This document shows, piece by piece, positions 962 through 15,386 of a DNA stretch of 20,900 bases. Source of the DNA: a virus. A program made the translations under genes and the position numbers. The first letter of the stretch is position 1; the number at the start of each line of letters is the position of its first letter. The stretch covers positions 1 through 20,900 of the IMG/VR virus record IMGVR_UViG_3300024346_000631, one strand, 5' to 3'. The notes beneath the pieces were generated by a model. The model did no database searches. It saw nothing but the letters and a program-made list of their open reading frames with translations, and was not told the DNA's origin.

Positions 962-3571
962 TTATAGAAGTCCGGCTAAGTGCATCATACGTTGTCTTAG
1001 CTCTTCTGGATCGTCTTTTGCAAGTGCAATATCGTCATCACCGTCGCCATCAACATCTACTTTAATCCAGTGATCACCTTCCTCATCATGGCAATCATGC
1101 TCACAGTCTGTTGTAGGCTTGTGCATTGTGTCGCCACAGTCTTTACATTGCATCATTTCTGCAACTTCTTCACTTTCAAATGCACTATTTGGTAAATCTA
1201 ATAAATTAAAACTATCTAACATATCGTTAATTTCTTGTATTGGATCTACGTCACTACCTGCCATGTAAATGCCACTTTCCGAAGCCATATAATCTTCAAG
1301 TGCATTGTATAGCTCTGAGCCATATATATCCGTTACATCACCTGCCTGTGCCATTTTCTTTGCGGCACTTGGATACTTTTTAAGTATATCCATTACCTCG
1401 CCTTTGTCAGTATCGTTAGCCATATGGCTGCCATGATCTCGGTGACTACTATCAAAGTCTTCATTTGATAATCCGGCTAAGTTAAGAACTCTGTCTAATT
1501 CATCATTAATTTCTTCTGCTTCTTCTTGGGATTCTTCTACTGCAATGTCTTCAGTTTTTGCCATTGCTTTTTCTACTTCAGCTGGATCCATATCTAGTTC
1601 TTTTGCTATATCTTCAATGCTTTTGCCTTTTGCTTTTAGACTGTGCATATACTTGATACTGCCTTCTTCAATGTCTGCTTCTTCAAGTGACTCGTTTTTG
1701 CTGCCTTCTCGAGCATCTCTCTTCATTTCAACATACTTGTCGTACATTGCTGGATCAACATCATATTTTTCACATGCTTCGTCCTGTGCATCTTCTGGCT
1801 CCATGCCGTCGTCAACTAAATCCATTTTCATCTTATTAATCTTAGAATAAACTTTTCCAACTTCTGCAATCTGATCAATGTCTGACTCTCCAAGTGGTAG
1901 TTCCATTTGAGGATTTGCTTCTGCACTTCCAGTTTTAGCAACAGCTATTAATTTACTTGATAAATCTGCTGGCATACCTGGATAAGAACGAATATTTTTT
2001 ATAATCCAATCTGCTATAATTGGTCTAGCATCTGCATTTGGATCTTCATCACCTTTATCGCCTAAGTCATCAAATAGTGTGTCATCGCCAATTACTGCAC
2101 CAATAGCATTTGTTGCATCTTCGCCACCTGGTCCTAATGGAAGAGGCTGTTTCATTAATTCTTCAATGTTTGCAACTGCTTCTGCTGTATCCGGAATTGC
2201 CCATGTACCTTCAACAATATTGTTTGCCCAATCTTCAAATTGTACTTCTTCAGTTTTCTTAATATGCTTTTTAGCCTTTGGCTCAACTACTTTAACTTTA
2301 CCTTTTAAGTATTTGCCTGCTAATTGATATGCAATCCTTTTCTGAGTTGAATCTGTCATATCTAATCCACCTAACTGGCGAGCTAACTCATCGTCAGTTG
2401 CACGTTTTGTAAGTGTTAGAACAATACGACTTGCAATTCCATCCATTGGATCTTCGCTTGTCTTACGATTACTTGCTTTCATTCTTTTAACAAAACCAAT
2501 GTAATTTTTAATGTCCTGATCTTCTTCTGGATTTGGATATATCTCAATCTCTGAATTAGCATCACCTGCTACTTGTGCTAATTCCATGTTTTCTTCAATG
2601 TTCATTGCTTTAATTCCTCGGGCTAAACTTGGTAATACTGTATCAACAATATTGTCTTTTTGAATTCTTACTAACTTTGCACGAATCTCATCAAGATCTG
2701 CTTGTTCGATACTTTCTTCAGTGGGCTCATATTGTCCAACATACCCTGCATAGCCTTTTGGGCCTGACAGTGTTTTAAGTGTAGAATTTAAGCCTATTGC
2801 ACGTTCTCGTGCTTGTTCAATAATTTTATAACCATCTTCGTTTGCAAAGTTATCAGCACGTCTAAAAGACTTTACAAACTTTTTGAGATCAACAACTTCT
2901 TGAACCATGTCAATTATATGTTGTCCAAATTCATCTTCAAATACTCCGCCTTGATTTACATGTTGTGCTAATGCTCTTGCACCAGCAAGATAATTGTAAG
3001 GCATTCTTGTTCTTTGTTTAGAAGTATCTTCGACGTATAAACTGTGTATTTGGCGTGTTCGACTTCCACGCTTCTCTTCATCAACTGGTTTGCTATGCTT
3101 TACGATTACTCTTACTTCGCCAATGTTTTGGTAACTTGTTCTTAGGCTTCCGTGCATTTTGCTTTCCATAGTAAATTCATCACTGCTATATGCAACATCA
3201 TTTGTCTTAATATAAGCATAGTCTTTTTTGTCAAGTTGTTGTTTTCCAATGTTACGAACATCAAAGCCCATTAAGTTACGCTTTGCAAAGTAACGAAGTT
3301 CTTTTAGAAATCCATACCAACTTTTTTTATCATCATATCTCATGTCTTCGGAAATATTATTATTGTAATAAACTACAAGAGTTGACGGGTCAACAATGTT
3401 TACTGTCACACTACCATATGTTTTTCCACTGCCAGTATACTCAAGTGTAAATATACGCCCGGAACTAGGATCGATTGTACTAAGTGCTTGTTCGTTTGCA
3501 ATAGTTAATTTGTCAAACTTTTTGCCTAGTATACTACTTAAATCTTTTGCAATTTTATTATGTATTTCCAT
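962..3571 (-). CDS. Large acidic multi-domain phage protein with LAG motifs and C-terminal Cys/Asp-rich tail
   Basis: The product is 869 aa. The function is not known to me; the N-terminal 280 residues look like a conserved globular domain of marine T4-like phages (WYGFLKELRYFAKRNLMGFD near 85-104, then SLRTSYQNIGEVRVIVKHSKPVDE near 142-165). The rest is acidic and segmented. Residues 649-670 read like a small helix-turn-helix (SIEDIAKELDMDPAEVEKAM), and 584-616 is a similar two-helix unit. LAGL motifs occur at 698-701 and at the extreme C-terminus (865-868). Before the end there is a C-x2-C (809/812) with a C-x3-C (823/827), possibly metal-binding, and a DxDGDGD run at 839-845 resembling a calcium loop. 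There is no Shine-Dalgarno: ATG lies 4 nt after the upstream gene's stop and at the predicted late transcription start. It could be a virion or head-assembly protein by context. Confidence 0.85.
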   Translation of the reverse strand: MEIHNKIAKDLSSILGKKFDKLTIANEQALSTIDPSSGRIFTLEYTGSGKTYGSVTVNIVDPSTLVVYYNNNISEDMRYDDKKSWYGFLKELRYFAKRNLMGFDVRNIGKQQLDKKDYAYIKTNDVAYSSDEFTMESKMHGSLRTSYQNIGEVRVIVKHSKPVDEEKRGSRTRQIHSLYVEDTSKQRTRMPYNYLAGARALAQHVNQGGVFEDEFGQHIIDMVQEVVDLKKFVKSFRRADNFANEDGYKIIEQARERAIGLNSTLKTLSGPKGYAGYVGQYEPTEESIEQADLDEIRAKLVRIQKDNIVDTVLPSLARGIKAMNIEENMELAQVAGDANSEIEIYPNPEEDQDIKNYIGFVKRMKASNRKTSEDPMDGIASRIVLTLTKRATDDELARQLGGLDMTDSTQKRIAYQLAGKYLKGKVKVVEPKAKKHIKKTEEVQFEDWANNIVEGTWAIPDTAEAVANIEELMKQPLPLGPGGEDATNAIGAVIGDDTLFDDLGDKGDEDPNADARPIIADWIIKNIRSYPGMPADLSSKLIAVAKTGSAEANPQMELPLGESDIDQIAEVGKVYSKINKMKMDLVDDGMEPEDAQDEACEKYDVDPAMYDKYVEMKRDAREGSKNESLEEADIEEGSIKYMHSLKAKGKSIEDIAKELDMDPAEVEKAMAKTEDIAVEESQEEAEEINDELDRVLNLAGLSNEDFDSSHRDHGSHMANDTDKGEVMDILKKYPSAAKKMAQAGDVTDIYGSELYNALEDYMASESGIYMAGSDVDPIQEINDMLDSFNLLDLPNSAFESEEVAEMMQCKDCGDTMHKPTTDCEHDCHDEEGDHWIKVDVDGDGDDDIALAKDDPEELRQRMMHLAGLL

Positions 3572-3575
3572 ACTA

Positions 3576-3935
3576 TTATTTATCCAAAGTTCTCTGTCTT
3601 GCCTTAGTCAAGATGACTAGATCCTGTTGAATCAGGACTGGTATTGGCGTTGAATGTCCGCTATAACAAGGATGACTGTATAACCATTCTTCATGATCTC
3701 TACTGTCATTTAGTCTGTTATGTACTTTACACAACAACCTTCCACTAGCATGTTTGTGTATCCACATCCTAGCAACATAATCTTCTAACGGTGTAATATT
3801 ATGTTCGCCCTGCCATTGTTGTATGTCTATCTTTTGCTTTAACCAATAAGACTTACTCCAAGGACAAACACAGATAATTGAAGCAAAATACTCGCTCCAA
3901 TTAACATTACTTACGCTTTCCGCCTTTTCCGCCAC
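3576..3935 (-). CDS. Conserved-looking Cys/Trp-rich protein of about 119 aa, start uncertain
   Basis: I do not recognise the family. The body is a soluble Trp/His/Cys-rich protein (NWSEYFASIICVCPWSK, then ARMWIHKHASGRLLCKVHNRL and YSHPCYSGHSTP), ending LTKARQRTLDK. Codon use looks genuinely coding to the stop. The start is a problem. The frame is open to a TTG at 3968, but that lies upstream of the predicted transcription start at 3964. The only good ribosome-binding site (AGGAG) serves an ATG in another frame at 3945. I list GTG at 3935, 17 nt from that AGGAG, which is too far to be convincing. Alternatives are +1 frameshifting from the mini-ORF at 3907-3945 or translational coupling to it. 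It lies between gp17 and the 869-aa gene and was probably co-transcribed with one of them. Confidence 0.6.
   Translation of the reverse strand: MAEKAESVSNVNWSEYFASIICVCPWSKSYWLKQKIDIQQWQGEHNITPLEDYVARMWIHKHASGRLLCKVHNRLNDSRDHEEWLYSHPCYSGHSTPIPVLIQQDLVILTKARQRTLDK
3577..3584 (-). promoter_or_regulatory. Late-type promoter box GATAAATA for the 869-aa gene
   Basis: GATAAATA differs from T4 TATAAATA only in the first base. It is built from the last codons of the preceding gene (GAT AAA TAA). With T4 geometry (start 6 nt after the box), transcription begins at 3571, the A of the ATG. Confidence 0.6.
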
Positions 3936-3945
3936 GTTTTGCCAT
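3907..3945 (-). CDS. Mini-ORF encoding a 12-residue Lys/Arg/Gly peptide
   Basis: ATG at 3945 is preceded by AAAAAAGGAGTCAGCAA, the strongest Shine-Dalgarno in this part of the window, and by a late-type box that predicts a 19-nt leader. The frame encodes MAKRGGKGGKRK and stops at TAA. It overlaps the Cys/Trp-rich gene in the +1 frame. The peptide may be a real nucleic-acid-binding micropeptide, a translational-coupling leader, or the 5' part of a frameshifted fusion with the following gene. A base-calling error is also possible. Confidence 0.45.
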   Translation of the reverse strand: MAKRGGKGGKRK

Positions 3946-3969
3946 TTGCTGACTCCTTTTTTATACAAA

Positions 3970-3977
3970 TATTTATC
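3970..3977 (-). promoter_or_regulatory. Late-type promoter box GATAAATA after gp17
   Basis: The box starts immediately after the TAG stop of the terminase gene. T4 geometry predicts a transcript start at 3964, leaving a 19-nt leader with AGGAG before the ATG at 3945. Confidence 0.65.
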
Positions 3978-5543
3978 CTACAACATAATAAATGGCATAG
4001 GCTCAATAATGTCGTCAACACTATCTCTCATTCTCTCTTCAATACTTGCATCATAATTTCGAATAATATTTGTCATTCGTAGTGCAAGTATCATGCTCAT
4101 AACTAAATCATCATTGTCGCCGGGTTTGGCAGAATAACTGTTTCCAGTTGCAACGAATGCTTTTAATTCACTTATAAGATTTTTACTGTGTAACTGTAAT
4201 CTGTCACTTTCAATCAAACTTTTTAATTTAGCACAAGCAGTAAGTTTACTTTTATGGGTTGTATTAAATCCTTTTCTATAACGTTTTGAATTACCATGAC
4301 TACGAGGTTCACTTAAAAACACGCCTGGTATATTTTCTTCTCCAATTTCTTGTATAGTAACAAGTATGGCTTCACCTAGTGTATTGTTTTCAACACTATA
4401 ATATACATCATTGGGTTCACCTGTTATGTCACACAAGTAACGGCATATTTCTCTTACAATTGCTACTTGCTGTTGCACTGGTGTTTTGTTGTGCATCCAC
4501 TCTCCAACTTGAGTTAAACTTGGAAGCTCAATAATTTGTATGGCTGCATTATCGCCACCAGTACCAAGACTAGGATCAAGTGCTACCATATATGTTTGTT
4601 CTTTGCTTGGCTTTTTAAACCAACGTACTTGCCCTTGCTTTTCTATTGGCTCTGTACCAGTTAGTTCGCTAAGTTTAATTGAGTTAATTAAAGTTTCGTC
4701 AAAGATGATTGGTTCGCAATCCATCTCTCTTCTGAATCGTTCTTCGCCAATACGAGCACGTTCTTCTTTTGCCCACTCATCATCTCTGTCCGGGTGCTCT
4801 CTCCATAGCGACTGGAAGGCACGAAATCCATTTTTTCCTAAGGGTTGTTGATTGCCGTATTCGTCAACTGTGTTATTTGCTTCTGTCCATAATAGCCAAA
4901 ACTGGTCTTCATCACTGCTTGGTGTTGATGTAATAATAGCCTTACCACCTGTTGCTAGTGTAGGTGAAATACTAGTCCAGAACTCTCTAGCAACACTAGG
5001 ACGCACAAACGCAAACTCGTCACAGTATAGTAATGTAATACTCATACCACGTCCTGTGTTTTCTGTTGTTGCTTGTGCTACAATTCTACTTCCGTTCTCA
5101 AACTCAATGCTACCTTTGTTGTAACTAACTGCACCAGCACGAATGTGGTCTGGGCATAGTTCGTAGGCATATCGTATACGTTGCATAATCTCCTGGGCAC
5201 CTTGATACTTATGTGCCGCAACTAATATAGTACTGTCAGGGACAAACATAGCATACCACAATAAGTAACCGCCCGCAGTTGTAGTTTTTCCCATTTGTCG
5301 ACTTAACAGATTGATACTAAATCTAAAACTGTGATATGTTGCCGCCAATGCAGACTGATATTCAAATGCTTTATACAACATTTTACCTTTTACAGGATGT
5401 TGTATATGGAAAAAGTTATCCATAAAATAATATGGACCTGTTGCCGGATCGGCACACTTAGCAAATTCAATAAGCTCATCTTCTTTCCAAGATTGGCTTT
5501 TGTGTGCTCTTTTTACTAGTACGCCATCTAAACTCTTGCTCAT
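3978..5543 (-). CDS. 17: Terminase large subunit (T4 gp17-like)
   Basis: The 521-aa product is the DNA-packaging motor ATPase and headful nuclease that docks on the portal. The ATPase domain shows Walker A SRQMGKTT at 81-88, Walker B LLYCDE at 171-176 with the catalytic Glu, and the coupling motif TSTP at 205-208. The nuclease domain has an RNase H-like set of acids: Asp323 (ALDPSLGTGGD), Glu385 (VENN) and Asp478/479 (NDDL), matching the layout of T4 Asp401/Glu458/Asp542. It is shorter than T4 gp17 (610 aa) mainly at the ends. ATG at 5543 follows AAAGG with 7 nt spacing. A GCTAAATA box lies upstream at 5584-5591, back to back with the promoter of the plus-strand HNH gene. The gp16-like gene is not adjacent but about 2.7 kb upstream in the same orientation, unlike T4. 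Confidence 0.96.
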   Translation of the reverse strand: MSKSLDGVLVKRAHKSQSWKEDELIEFAKCADPATGPYYFMDNFFHIQHPVKGKMLYKAFEYQSALAATYHSFRFSINLLSRQMGKTTTAGGYLLWYAMFVPDSTILVAAHKYQGAQEIMQRIRYAYELCPDHIRAGAVSYNKGSIEFENGSRIVAQATTENTGRGMSITLLYCDEFAFVRPSVAREFWTSISPTLATGGKAIITSTPSSDEDQFWLLWTEANNTVDEYGNQQPLGKNGFRAFQSLWREHPDRDDEWAKEERARIGEERFRREMDCEPIIFDETLINSIKLSELTGTEPIEKQGQVRWFKKPSKEQTYMVALDPSLGTGGDNAAIQIIELPSLTQVGEWMHNKTPVQQQVAIVREICRYLCDITGEPNDVYYSVENNTLGEAILVTIQEIGEENIPGVFLSEPRSHGNSKRYRKGFNTTHKSKLTACAKLKSLIESDRLQLHSKNLISELKAFVATGNSYSAKPGDNDDLVMSMILALRMTNIIRNYDASIEERMRDSVDDIIEPMPFIML

Positions 5544-5616: not shown

Positions 5617-6171
5617 GTGAGCGATTGTTTAATTTTAAATGGCGACTACCAGCCACTCAGCCTACTTCCACTAAGTGTGGTCGGTTGGCAACAGGCTGTT
5701 AAGTTATACTTCCTTGATCGGGTTCGTATTATAGAAGTCTACGACGATTGGAAAGTACATAGCCCAAGTATGGATTTTAATGTTCCTGCTCTTGTTGCTT
5801 TAAAAGAATATCACCATATTAAGAAGCATGTAAAATTTGGAAGAGCACATTTATTTCTTAGAGATATGTATCAATGCCAATACTGTGCTGACACATTTAA
5901 CATAGCCGACCTTACAGTTGATCATGTTACTCCTGTCAGTAAGGGCGGTAAAACTTCTTGGGAAAATTGTGTAAGTGCTTGTAGGAAATGTAATACAAGT
6001 AAAGGAAATAAAGTTGGATACATGACTCCATTAAAAGAGCCATATCGCCCTGATTACTTTAACTTATCAAGTTTACGAAAAAATCGCCCATTCAATGTTA
6101 AACATCAAAGTTGGCTACAGTATATTGGAAATGCGGAAGGCTTTAAGTTCCGTAAGGATTCTCGCCAGTAA
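5617..6171 (+). CDS. HNH endonuclease (stand-alone)
   Basis: The 184-aa product has an N-terminal domain typical of phage and cyanobacterial HNH proteins (CLILNGDYQPLSLLPLSVV, 4-22). A complete HNH zinc-finger core follows: C87-x2-C90, VDHVTPVSKGG with Asp102-His103, Asn117 in WENCV, and C122-x2-C125 followed by Asn126. Such proteins nick or cut DNA and often act as homing or moron genes. It is inserted against the direction of the flanking structural genes. Its 3' end overlaps the 70-aa gene on the other strand by 29 nt. The start is GTG at 5617 because ATG at 5612 is followed by an immediate stop and the next in-frame ATG would remove the conserved N-terminus. No Shine-Dalgarno is visible. 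Confidence 0.9.
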   Translation: MSDCLILNGDYQPLSLLPLSVVGWQQAVKLYFLDRVRIIEVYDDWKVHSPSMDFNVPALVALKEYHHIKKHVKFGRAHLFLRDMYQCQYCADTFNIADLTVDHVTPVSKGGKTSWENCVSACRKCNTSKGNKVGYMTPLKEPYRPDYFNLSSLRKNRPFNVKHQSWLQYIGNAEGFKFRKDSRQ

Positions 6172-8294: not shown

Positions 8295-8774
8295 TTATTT
8301 ATCGTTTTTTAAAAGTTTTTCAAGTAACGAATTGCGGTCTAGCACCACTGCATCGCCCGAATCTACTGATTCTGTTGACCCGTCAATCTTTGATTGTTGC
8401 TGATCTAGCCTTGCTTTTTTCAATTGTAAATCAATCATTTTTAATTTACGATCAATTTTAGCACTTTTAGCATTAAGAGCAGTATCTAACATACGAGCTG
8501 CAGTACTAAAAATGTCTCCACTAAATCGTGCTTCAACATTCATTCCTAAATCCATTAAATCTTTAAATGTATCTTTGGCAGTATCAGCAATGTCATCCAT
8601 TTCAGCATCACTTGCCTCAAGATTAGTAACCATTGGCAGAGCCGCATCAATCTTATCAGCTTTATCTAATGCGTTTGTAAGTTGTTCAGCAGTAGGTTGT
8701 GGTAAAACATCATCCACAGGCTCTTCAATTGGAATTGGCGCTAAGTCCAATAATTCTTCCAGTTTTTTTGTCAT
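8295..8774 (-). CDS. 16: Probable terminase small subunit (T4 gp16-like)
   Basis: The 159-aa product is close in length to T4 gp16 (164 aa). The family regulates gp17 ATPase and DNA entry as a ring. Residues about 55-130 form a predicted helical hairpin (DIADTAKDTFKDLMDLGMN, then FSTAARMLDTALNAKSAKIDRK, then LKMIDLQLKKARLDQQ), the coiled-coil pattern of gp16 central domains. The N-terminus KKLEELLDLAPIP and the C-terminus LLEKLLKN are short flexible arms. It lies directly downstream of gp4 rather than beside gp17. The assignment rests on pattern, length and context; a different helical virion-assembly protein is possible. No strong Shine-Dalgarno is seen; the start context GATAAGTATTAGTATG resembles that of the 869-aa gene. 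Confidence 0.65.
   Translation of the reverse strand: MTKKLEELLDLAPIPIEEPVDDVLPQPTAEQLTNALDKADKIDAALPMVTNLEASDAEMDDIADTAKDTFKDLMDLGMNVEARFSGDIFSTAARMLDTALNAKSAKIDRKLKMIDLQLKKARLDQQQSKIDGSTESVDSGDAVVLDRNSLLEKLLKNDK
8296..8303 (-). promoter_or_regulatory. Late-type promoter box GATAAATA for the leader-bearing protein
   Basis: The box is formed by the end of the upstream gene (GAT AAA TAA). It predicts a start at 8290 and a 24-nt leader containing AAAGG before ATG at 8265. Confidence 0.65.
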
Positions 8775-15038: not shown

Positions 15039-15386
15039 ATGAAGAACAGACCTATATGCACTAAATGCAAGAAAAAGTTTGCGGCAGTGAATTACAAAAA
15101 AGGGGAAAAGGTGTACTATCGTAAAATGTGCGATAGTTGCACTCGTAACCACCGACATCATAAAAATAAAAGCCCGTGGTCTAAAGCAGGATATAAGAAA
15201 AAAACCACATGTGAAAAATGTGGCTTTGAAGCAAAATTCTATGATCAACTTGAAGTTTATTATTTAGATGGAAACATGATTAATATCAAACATACTAATC
15301 TTAAAACTGTTTGTTTAAATTGTTTAACTGAATTAGGACACGAGGGTTGGAATACTAAGCAAGGTGACTTAGTACCTGATTTTTAA
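15039..15386 (+). CDS. Cys-rich zinc-binding protein, degenerate HNH-like
   Basis: The 115-aa basic product carries four CxxC pairs (Cys7/10, 31/34, 58/61, 92/95), expected to bind two zinc ions. The C-terminal half follows the HNH outline: CEKCGFEAKFYDQ, then LEVYYLDGNMINIKHTNLKTVCLNC. This matches the 'vyHiDgn..n....NL.tvC.nC' layout except that the usual His is Tyr75. It may be a DNA-binding protein without cleavage activity, or an HNH variant. Like the other plus-strand HNH gene it is inserted against the surrounding genes, has a near-leaderless promoter, and overlaps the end of its minus-strand neighbour (32 nt with dNMP kinase). Confidence 0.82.
   Translation: MKNRPICTKCKKKFAAVNYKKGEKVYYRKMCDSCTRNHRHHKNKSPWSKAGYKKKTTCEKCGFEAKFYDQLEVYYLDGNMINIKHTNLKTVCLNCLTELGHEGWNTKQGDLVPDF

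What the first reader, a model, noticed from the sequence alone, without database searches (positions are those of the whole stretch)
3569..3984. Mini-ORF MAKRGGKGGKRK with the best ribosome site overlaps a Cys/Trp-rich gene in the +1 frame
The late box at 3970-3977, an AGGAG and an ATG at 3945 point at a 12-residue basic peptide. The real-looking longer protein has no start codon in a comparable position. The peptide would end in AAG TAA while the longer frame continues one base over. Either a micropeptide, a +1 frameshift producing a basic tail fused to a Cys/Trp protein, or a sequencing error explains it. The first two would be new.
Basis: partly seen in the sequence, partly recalled or inferred. 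Interest (0 to 1): 0.6.

Follow-up and report, generated by a model that had tools for sequence, protein, structure and literature searches.

The report
Micropeptide gene holding next gene's start
In these ocean phages a 12-residue basic peptide and a larger Cys/Trp protein are two separate overlapping genes, the second starting at a GTG hidden inside the first, so the odd frame relation is a conserved gene overlap and not a ribosomal frameshift or a sequencing error.

Summary
On the minus strand, MAKRGGKGGKRK* (3945-3907, strong ribosome site) overlaps, one frame over, a Cys/Trp protein frame ending at 3576. It is not an error: 163 distinct relatives have a Lys/Arg/Gly mini-ORF in the same +1 relation. 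It is very probably not a frameshift. In all 175 distinct relatives with upstream DNA the long frame has an ATG or GTG within 30 codons of its first conserved Trp, more often than synonymous codon choice predicts, although its position moved at least 48 times on the tree. Where the two genes are physically separated (a gene inserted, a spacer, a hairpin), the long gene has its own ATG or GTG; in the two cases whose mini-ORF was read out fully, the mini-ORF has lost its internal GTG. No slippery site is shared. The mini-ORF is under purifying selection (pN/pS 0.13), so a conserved phage micropeptide is well supported. The GTG lacks a ribosome site, so translation is inferred to be coupled. Both genes lie in the packaging/head module; what they do is unknown. 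Ordinary mechanism, new micropeptide family.

The parts
3907..3945 (-). micropeptide gene MAKRGGKGGKRK* (12 residues)
   Evidence: same kind of mini-ORF in 163 distinct relatives; pN/pS 0.13 over 30 pairs
3953..3957 (-). Shine-Dalgarno AGGAG of the micropeptide gene
   Evidence: pairing energy -8.2 kcal/mol
3970..3977 (-). late-promoter-like box GATAAATA, conserved in the close relatives
   Evidence: promoter function inferred
3933..3935 (-). GTG start codon of the long gene, nested in the micropeptide gene (CGT|GGC)
   Evidence: initiation itself not shown
3576..3935 (-). long gene, 119-residue Cys/Trp protein (MAEKAESVSNVNWSEYFASIICVCPWS...IPVLIQQD...)
   Evidence: family alignment A1; AlphaFold pLDDT 84.8, pTM 0.75
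3907..3935 (-). region read in both frames; it evolves as the micropeptide frame, not as the long frame
   Evidence: pN/pS 0.16 in the micropeptide frame against 4.95 in the +1 frame
3978..5543 (-). terminase large subunit gene upstream
   Evidence: PHROG and Pfam matches
962..3571 (-). 869-residue virion structural protein gene downstream
   Evidence: phrog_13484

Best explanation
Two separate overlapping genes. Ribosomes load at the strong site of the micropeptide gene (3945) and make a 12-residue basic peptide. The 119-residue Cys/Trp protein is a second gene in the +1 frame that starts at GTG 3935, inside the micropeptide gene. That GTG has no ribosome site of its own, so it is probably fed by ribosomes that translate the micropeptide and stop 26 bases further on (translational coupling). 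Shown: conservation of both frames, conservation of a start codon in the long frame, existence of separated copies, selection on the micropeptide. Inferred: initiation at this GTG, the coupling, and a role in head assembly or packaging from gene neighbourhood.
For: All 175 distinct contexts with upstream DNA have an ATG or GTG in the long frame within 30 codons of the first conserved Trp. Synonymous redrawing of the mini-ORFs predicts a start in 35.2 of 44 representatives under 70% identity; 42 have one (tail probability 0.002), and the other two, L239 and L249, have an ATG just outside the mini-ORF. The start position changes at least 48 times on the tree without loss. In L044 an unrelated 237-residue gene separates the two: the mini-ORF reads GGC GGA instead of GGT GGA, and a GTG stands directly before the long gene. 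L249 has a spacer, and L159, L192 and L201 have terminator-like hairpins; their long genes start with ATG. L203, L102, L114 and L262 carry ATG in place of GTG through codon changes in the mini-ORF. The micropeptide frame is under purifying selection and the +1 frame of the overlap is not. The GTG has no ribosome site (median -1.9, controls -3.1, mini-ORF ATG -8.2).
Against: No translation data. The GTG has no Shine-Dalgarno and lies 14-47 bases before the mini-ORF stop, further than the usual 1-4 base overlaps of coupled genes. At the strictest clustering (21 representatives) start retention is only modestly significant (P 0.02). The pN/pS pairs were chosen to have equal length and at least 40% mini-ORF identity, which favours a low ratio (unfiltered 0.45, partly from misassigned starts).
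Confidence: 0.9

Rival explanations
1. Programmed +1 ribosomal frameshift at or before the mini-ORF stop fuses the basic peptide to the Cys/Trp protein.
For: The frame relation is always +1 and the long frame is open back through the mini-ORF. The GTG lacks a ribosome site.
Against: The last codon plus stop is of 17 kinds (GGT TAA, AAG TAA, GGA TAG, CGT TAA ...), so no shared slippery site. Separated copies have their own start. A start codon is kept although a frameshift would not need one. The +1 reading of the overlap is not conserved as protein. The constant +1 relation follows from codon content: within Lys/Arg/Gly codons a start can arise only as xGT|G, which is the +1 frame.
Confidence: 0.05
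2. Sequencing or assembly error: the two frames are one gene with a base lost or gained.
For: A single window cannot exclude it.
Against: 163 distinct relatives from many samples show the same relation and none is joined in frame.
Confidence: 0.005
3. The mini-ORF is an untranslated or merely regulatory leader whose peptide does not matter; only the long gene is real.
For: The peptide is very short and low in complexity. Translating it could serve only to deliver ribosomes to the GTG.
Against: pN/pS 0.10 in the part upstream of the GTG, where only the peptide is constrained. The mini-ORF persists in L044 and L249 where it no longer overlaps the long gene. In the L139 group the basic stretch is the C-terminal end of a 671-residue protein.
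Confidence: 0.15

Closest known systems
Translationally coupled overlapping gene pairs (termination-reinitiation; PMC6728339, PMC10666635)
   Same: Co-directed overlapping genes, the second start without its own strong ribosome site
   Different: Known pairs mostly overlap by 1 or 4 bases; here the start lies 14-47 bases inside the upstream gene, which is itself only 12 to about 35 codons. Coupling is inferred, not tested.
Phage and bacterial small-protein (micropeptide) genes
   Same: Very short conserved ORF with a strong ribosome site that annotation tends to miss
   Different: Lys/Arg/Gly-only composition, and it carries the start codon of the next gene; no named family found
Programmed +1 frameshifting (prfB type; reviewed in PMC5009743)
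   Same: Two frames joined by a +1 relation at a stop codon
   Different: No conserved slippery codon or stimulatory site; the second frame keeps its own start
HMO-2011 phage protein phage1322_66 (phrog_28122) and relatives
   Same: Weak sequence relative of the long protein (25.8% identity to L046's protein, E 4e-3)
   Different: Starts at a plain ATG in a TAATG overlap after a longer upstream gene

Membership tests
Programmed +1 ribosomal frameshift genes | Conserved slippery codon at the shift site | tested here: not met
   17 kinds of last codon plus stop among 163 loci
Programmed +1 ribosomal frameshift genes | Downstream frame has no start of its own | tested here: not met
   ATG or GTG in the long frame in 175 of 175 contexts
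Programmed +1 ribosomal frameshift genes | Fused product exists | not testable with these tools
   needs proteomics
Overlapping, translationally coupled gene pair | Co-directed genes sharing bases in different frames, both under selection | tested here: met
   pN/pS 0.13 (micropeptide) and 0.17 (long body)
Overlapping, translationally coupled gene pair | Start codon of the second gene conserved | tested here: met
Overlapping, translationally coupled gene pair | Second gene's translation depends on the first | not testable with these tools
   only the lack of a ribosome site at the GTG was seen
YqcI/YcgG heme-thiolate enzymes (AglA), considered for the long protein | Same fold | tested here: inconclusive
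   VIA-align Z 7.3 over 116 residues against AglA, next row 4.2, but Z under 8 may be a common arrangement; Foldseek's best PDB match had E 0.18
YqcI/YcgG heme-thiolate enzymes (AglA), considered for the long protein | Recognisable sequence relationship | tested here: not met
   no Pfam match; profile-profile probability 0.3%
YqcI/YcgG heme-thiolate enzymes (AglA), considered for the long protein | Cys heme ligand | not tested
   the family has an invariant Cys24, but its match to AglA Cys44 (PMC12866846) could not be checked

The most novel reading that the evidence does not exclude
The basic micropeptide and the Cys/Trp protein are a two-part unit of phage head assembly or DNA packaging, kept together in many tailed marine phages, in which the protein binds or modifies the Lys/Arg-rich peptide (its predicted fold loosely resembles an arginine-hydroxylating heme enzyme).
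Probability: 0.06. Interest if true: 0.7.

Novelty: new member of a known kind. Interest (0 to 1): 0.35.

Why it matters
It adds a conserved phage micropeptide family, as short as 12 residues, next to the portal, scaffold and terminase genes, which standard gene calling would tend to miss. It also shows a clean case in which one gene's synonymous codon choice (GGT or CGT before a G) is held by the need to supply the next gene's start codon, and it shows how comparing separated and joined copies tells an overlapping gene from a frameshift.

Tried and rejected
Frameshift and sequencing error (see rivals). Transcriptional slippage on A-runs: the longest run in the window's mini-ORF is 4 A, too short by general knowledge of slippage. 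The TTG at 3968 as the start: it lies between the late-like box and the ribosome site, and in other clades the long frame has a stop before that point. A 22-residue hydrophobic ORF beginning at the TAATG after the mini-ORF was noticed by eye and not pursued; relatives with AGGTTAATTGG at that point have no ATG there. Naming the long protein: no PHROG or Pfam match above threshold, no PDB sequence match, no significant Foldseek PDB match (best E 0.18); a BFVD structure match (A0A516M8K8, E 3e-12, 49% identity) is an unnamed viral protein. The AglA fold resemblance was tested by profile-profile comparison with 111 YqcI/YcgG segments and not supported. No relatives in bacterial or archaeal genomes; among phage records only weak HMO-2011 matches. 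The first, unfiltered selection test mixed wrongly chosen start codons and was repeated. Attempts to reach prokaryote genomes through an E. coli locus failed.

Full report
What is there. The window is 20.9 kb of a tailed-phage contig, a virus record with nothing beyond the window held, with a terminase large subunit, an 869-residue virion protein, tail sheath and tail tube genes on the minus strand. Between terminase (ends 3978) and the virion protein (starts 3571) lie a late-like box GATAAATA, AGGAG, and ATG at 3945 opening MAKRGGKGGKRK*. One frame over, an open frame runs to 3576 and encodes the Cys/Trp protein.

Relatives. Four scans of viral contigs and one annotated phage record gave the 275 loci and window sequences that were analysed. 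After removing duplicates, 175 contexts have enough upstream DNA, and 163 distinct loci carry a Lys/Arg/Gly-rich mini-ORF in the same +1 frame. In all but one of those the mini-ORF stop lies 4, 7, 10 or 13 bases before the conserved Trp codon; the exception, L249, has a 43-base distance and is a separated case. None is joined in frame. This removes the error explanation. In the L139 group the basic stretch is the end of a long protein with a peptidoglycan-binding-like segment rather than a free peptide.

Start codon or frameshift. Every one of the 175 contexts has an ATG or GTG in the long frame within 30 codons of the Trp. When mini-ORF codons are redrawn synonymously with the usage of neighbouring long ORFs, a start is expected in 75.3 of 91 representatives and seen in 89; among 44 representatives under 70% identity 35.2 are expected and 42 seen (tail 0.002); among 21 under 55% identity 16.4 expected and 20 seen (0.02). 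Exactly one start is about twice as common as expected (32 against 15 of 44). The exceptions have their ATG just outside the mini-ORF. On a protein tree with many weak forks the start position changes at least 48 times. L026 and L030 show such a move: the GTG shifts by eight codons through synonymous Gly changes while the peptide stays the same.

Separated copies. In L044 an unrelated 237-residue gene sits between the two. Its mini-ORF has GGC GGA where sister L042/L043 has GGT GGA, so the internal GTG is gone, and the long gene begins GTG AAT GAG CAA ATT AAT TGG. In L249 a spacer separates them, the mini-ORF again has GGC GGA, and the long gene begins ATG ACA GAT TGG. In L159, L192 and L201 a hairpin with a T-run lies between, and the long gene begins with ATG. 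In L203, L102, L114 and L262 the frames overlap and the long frame has ATG where others have GTG, through Asn-Gly or Tyr-Gly codons in the mini-ORF. Together these show two genes, the second with its own start. The codon plus stop at the end of the mini-ORF is of 17 kinds, so no slippery site is shared. The constant +1 relation has a simple cause: inside Lys/Arg/Gly codons a start codon can only appear as xGT|G.

Selection. Over 30 pairs of relatives the micropeptide frame has pN/pS 0.13 (0.10 upstream of the GTG, 0.16 in the overlap), the long body 0.17, and the +1 reading of the overlap 4.95. The overlap therefore evolves as the micropeptide, and the first residues of the long protein are by-products. 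Pair selection favours a low ratio; the unfiltered first try gave 0.45 with wrongly chosen starts among the pairs.

How it probably works. The mini-ORF ATG has a strong ribosome site (median -8.2 kcal/mol) and the GTG has none (median -1.9, other positions -3.1). Coupling to micropeptide translation is the likely source of ribosomes for the GTG; this is inference, in line with termination-reinitiation in overlapping genes (PMC6728339, PMC10666635, found and not read in full).

What the products do. Nearest recognised neighbours are portal upstream and scaffold downstream in 48 distinct loci, with terminase downstream in 61; the window's arrangement, terminase upstream and the 869-residue protein downstream, is found in 4 (family assignments). 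A role in head assembly or packaging is therefore likely for both, and a DNA- or capsid-binding role for the basic peptide is a guess from its charge. The long protein is predicted with good confidence (pLDDT 84.8, pTM 0.75) and has no named family. VIA-align put five AglA chains on top (Z 6.9-7.3, 116 residues; next 4.2). AglA is a YqcI/YcgG enzyme whose heme iron is held by Cys44 (PMC12866846), and the phage family has an invariant Cys24. Profile comparison with 111 YqcI/YcgG segments gave no support, so this stays a lead.

Verdict.

Noticed in passing
L044:2271-2984: Unrelated 237-residue gene (MAQRIDGVEPFQ...) inserted exactly between the micropeptide gene and the long gene; a recent insertion relative to L042/L043.
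   Followed up: partly
L139:990-3005: 671-residue protein with a peptidoglycan-binding-like segment (PHROG endolysin matches) ends in SRGKKSRGKKSRG, the counterpart of the free micropeptide.
   Followed up: partly
window 3577-3584, 3970-3977, 8296-8303 (minus): Three GATAAATA boxes, all just upstream of minus-strand genes; candidate late promoters, though the motif is not enriched overall.
   Followed up: partly
window 5617-6171 (plus): 184-residue ORF with an HNH-endonuclease-like Cys/His pattern (CQYC...DHVTPVSKGG...CRKCN) next to terminase; by eye only.
   Followed up: no
window 15039-15386 (plus): 115-residue ORF with several CxxC pairs, zinc-ribbon-like; by eye only.
   Followed up: no
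window 3576-3935 (minus), model m32989a0871e4: Predicted fold of the long protein resembles AglA (YqcI/YcgG heme-thiolate enzyme) at Z 7.3 without sequence support.
   Followed up: partly
L159, L192, L201 upstream of the long gene: Terminator-like hairpin with T-run between the basic ORF and the long gene, seen by eye.
   Followed up: no
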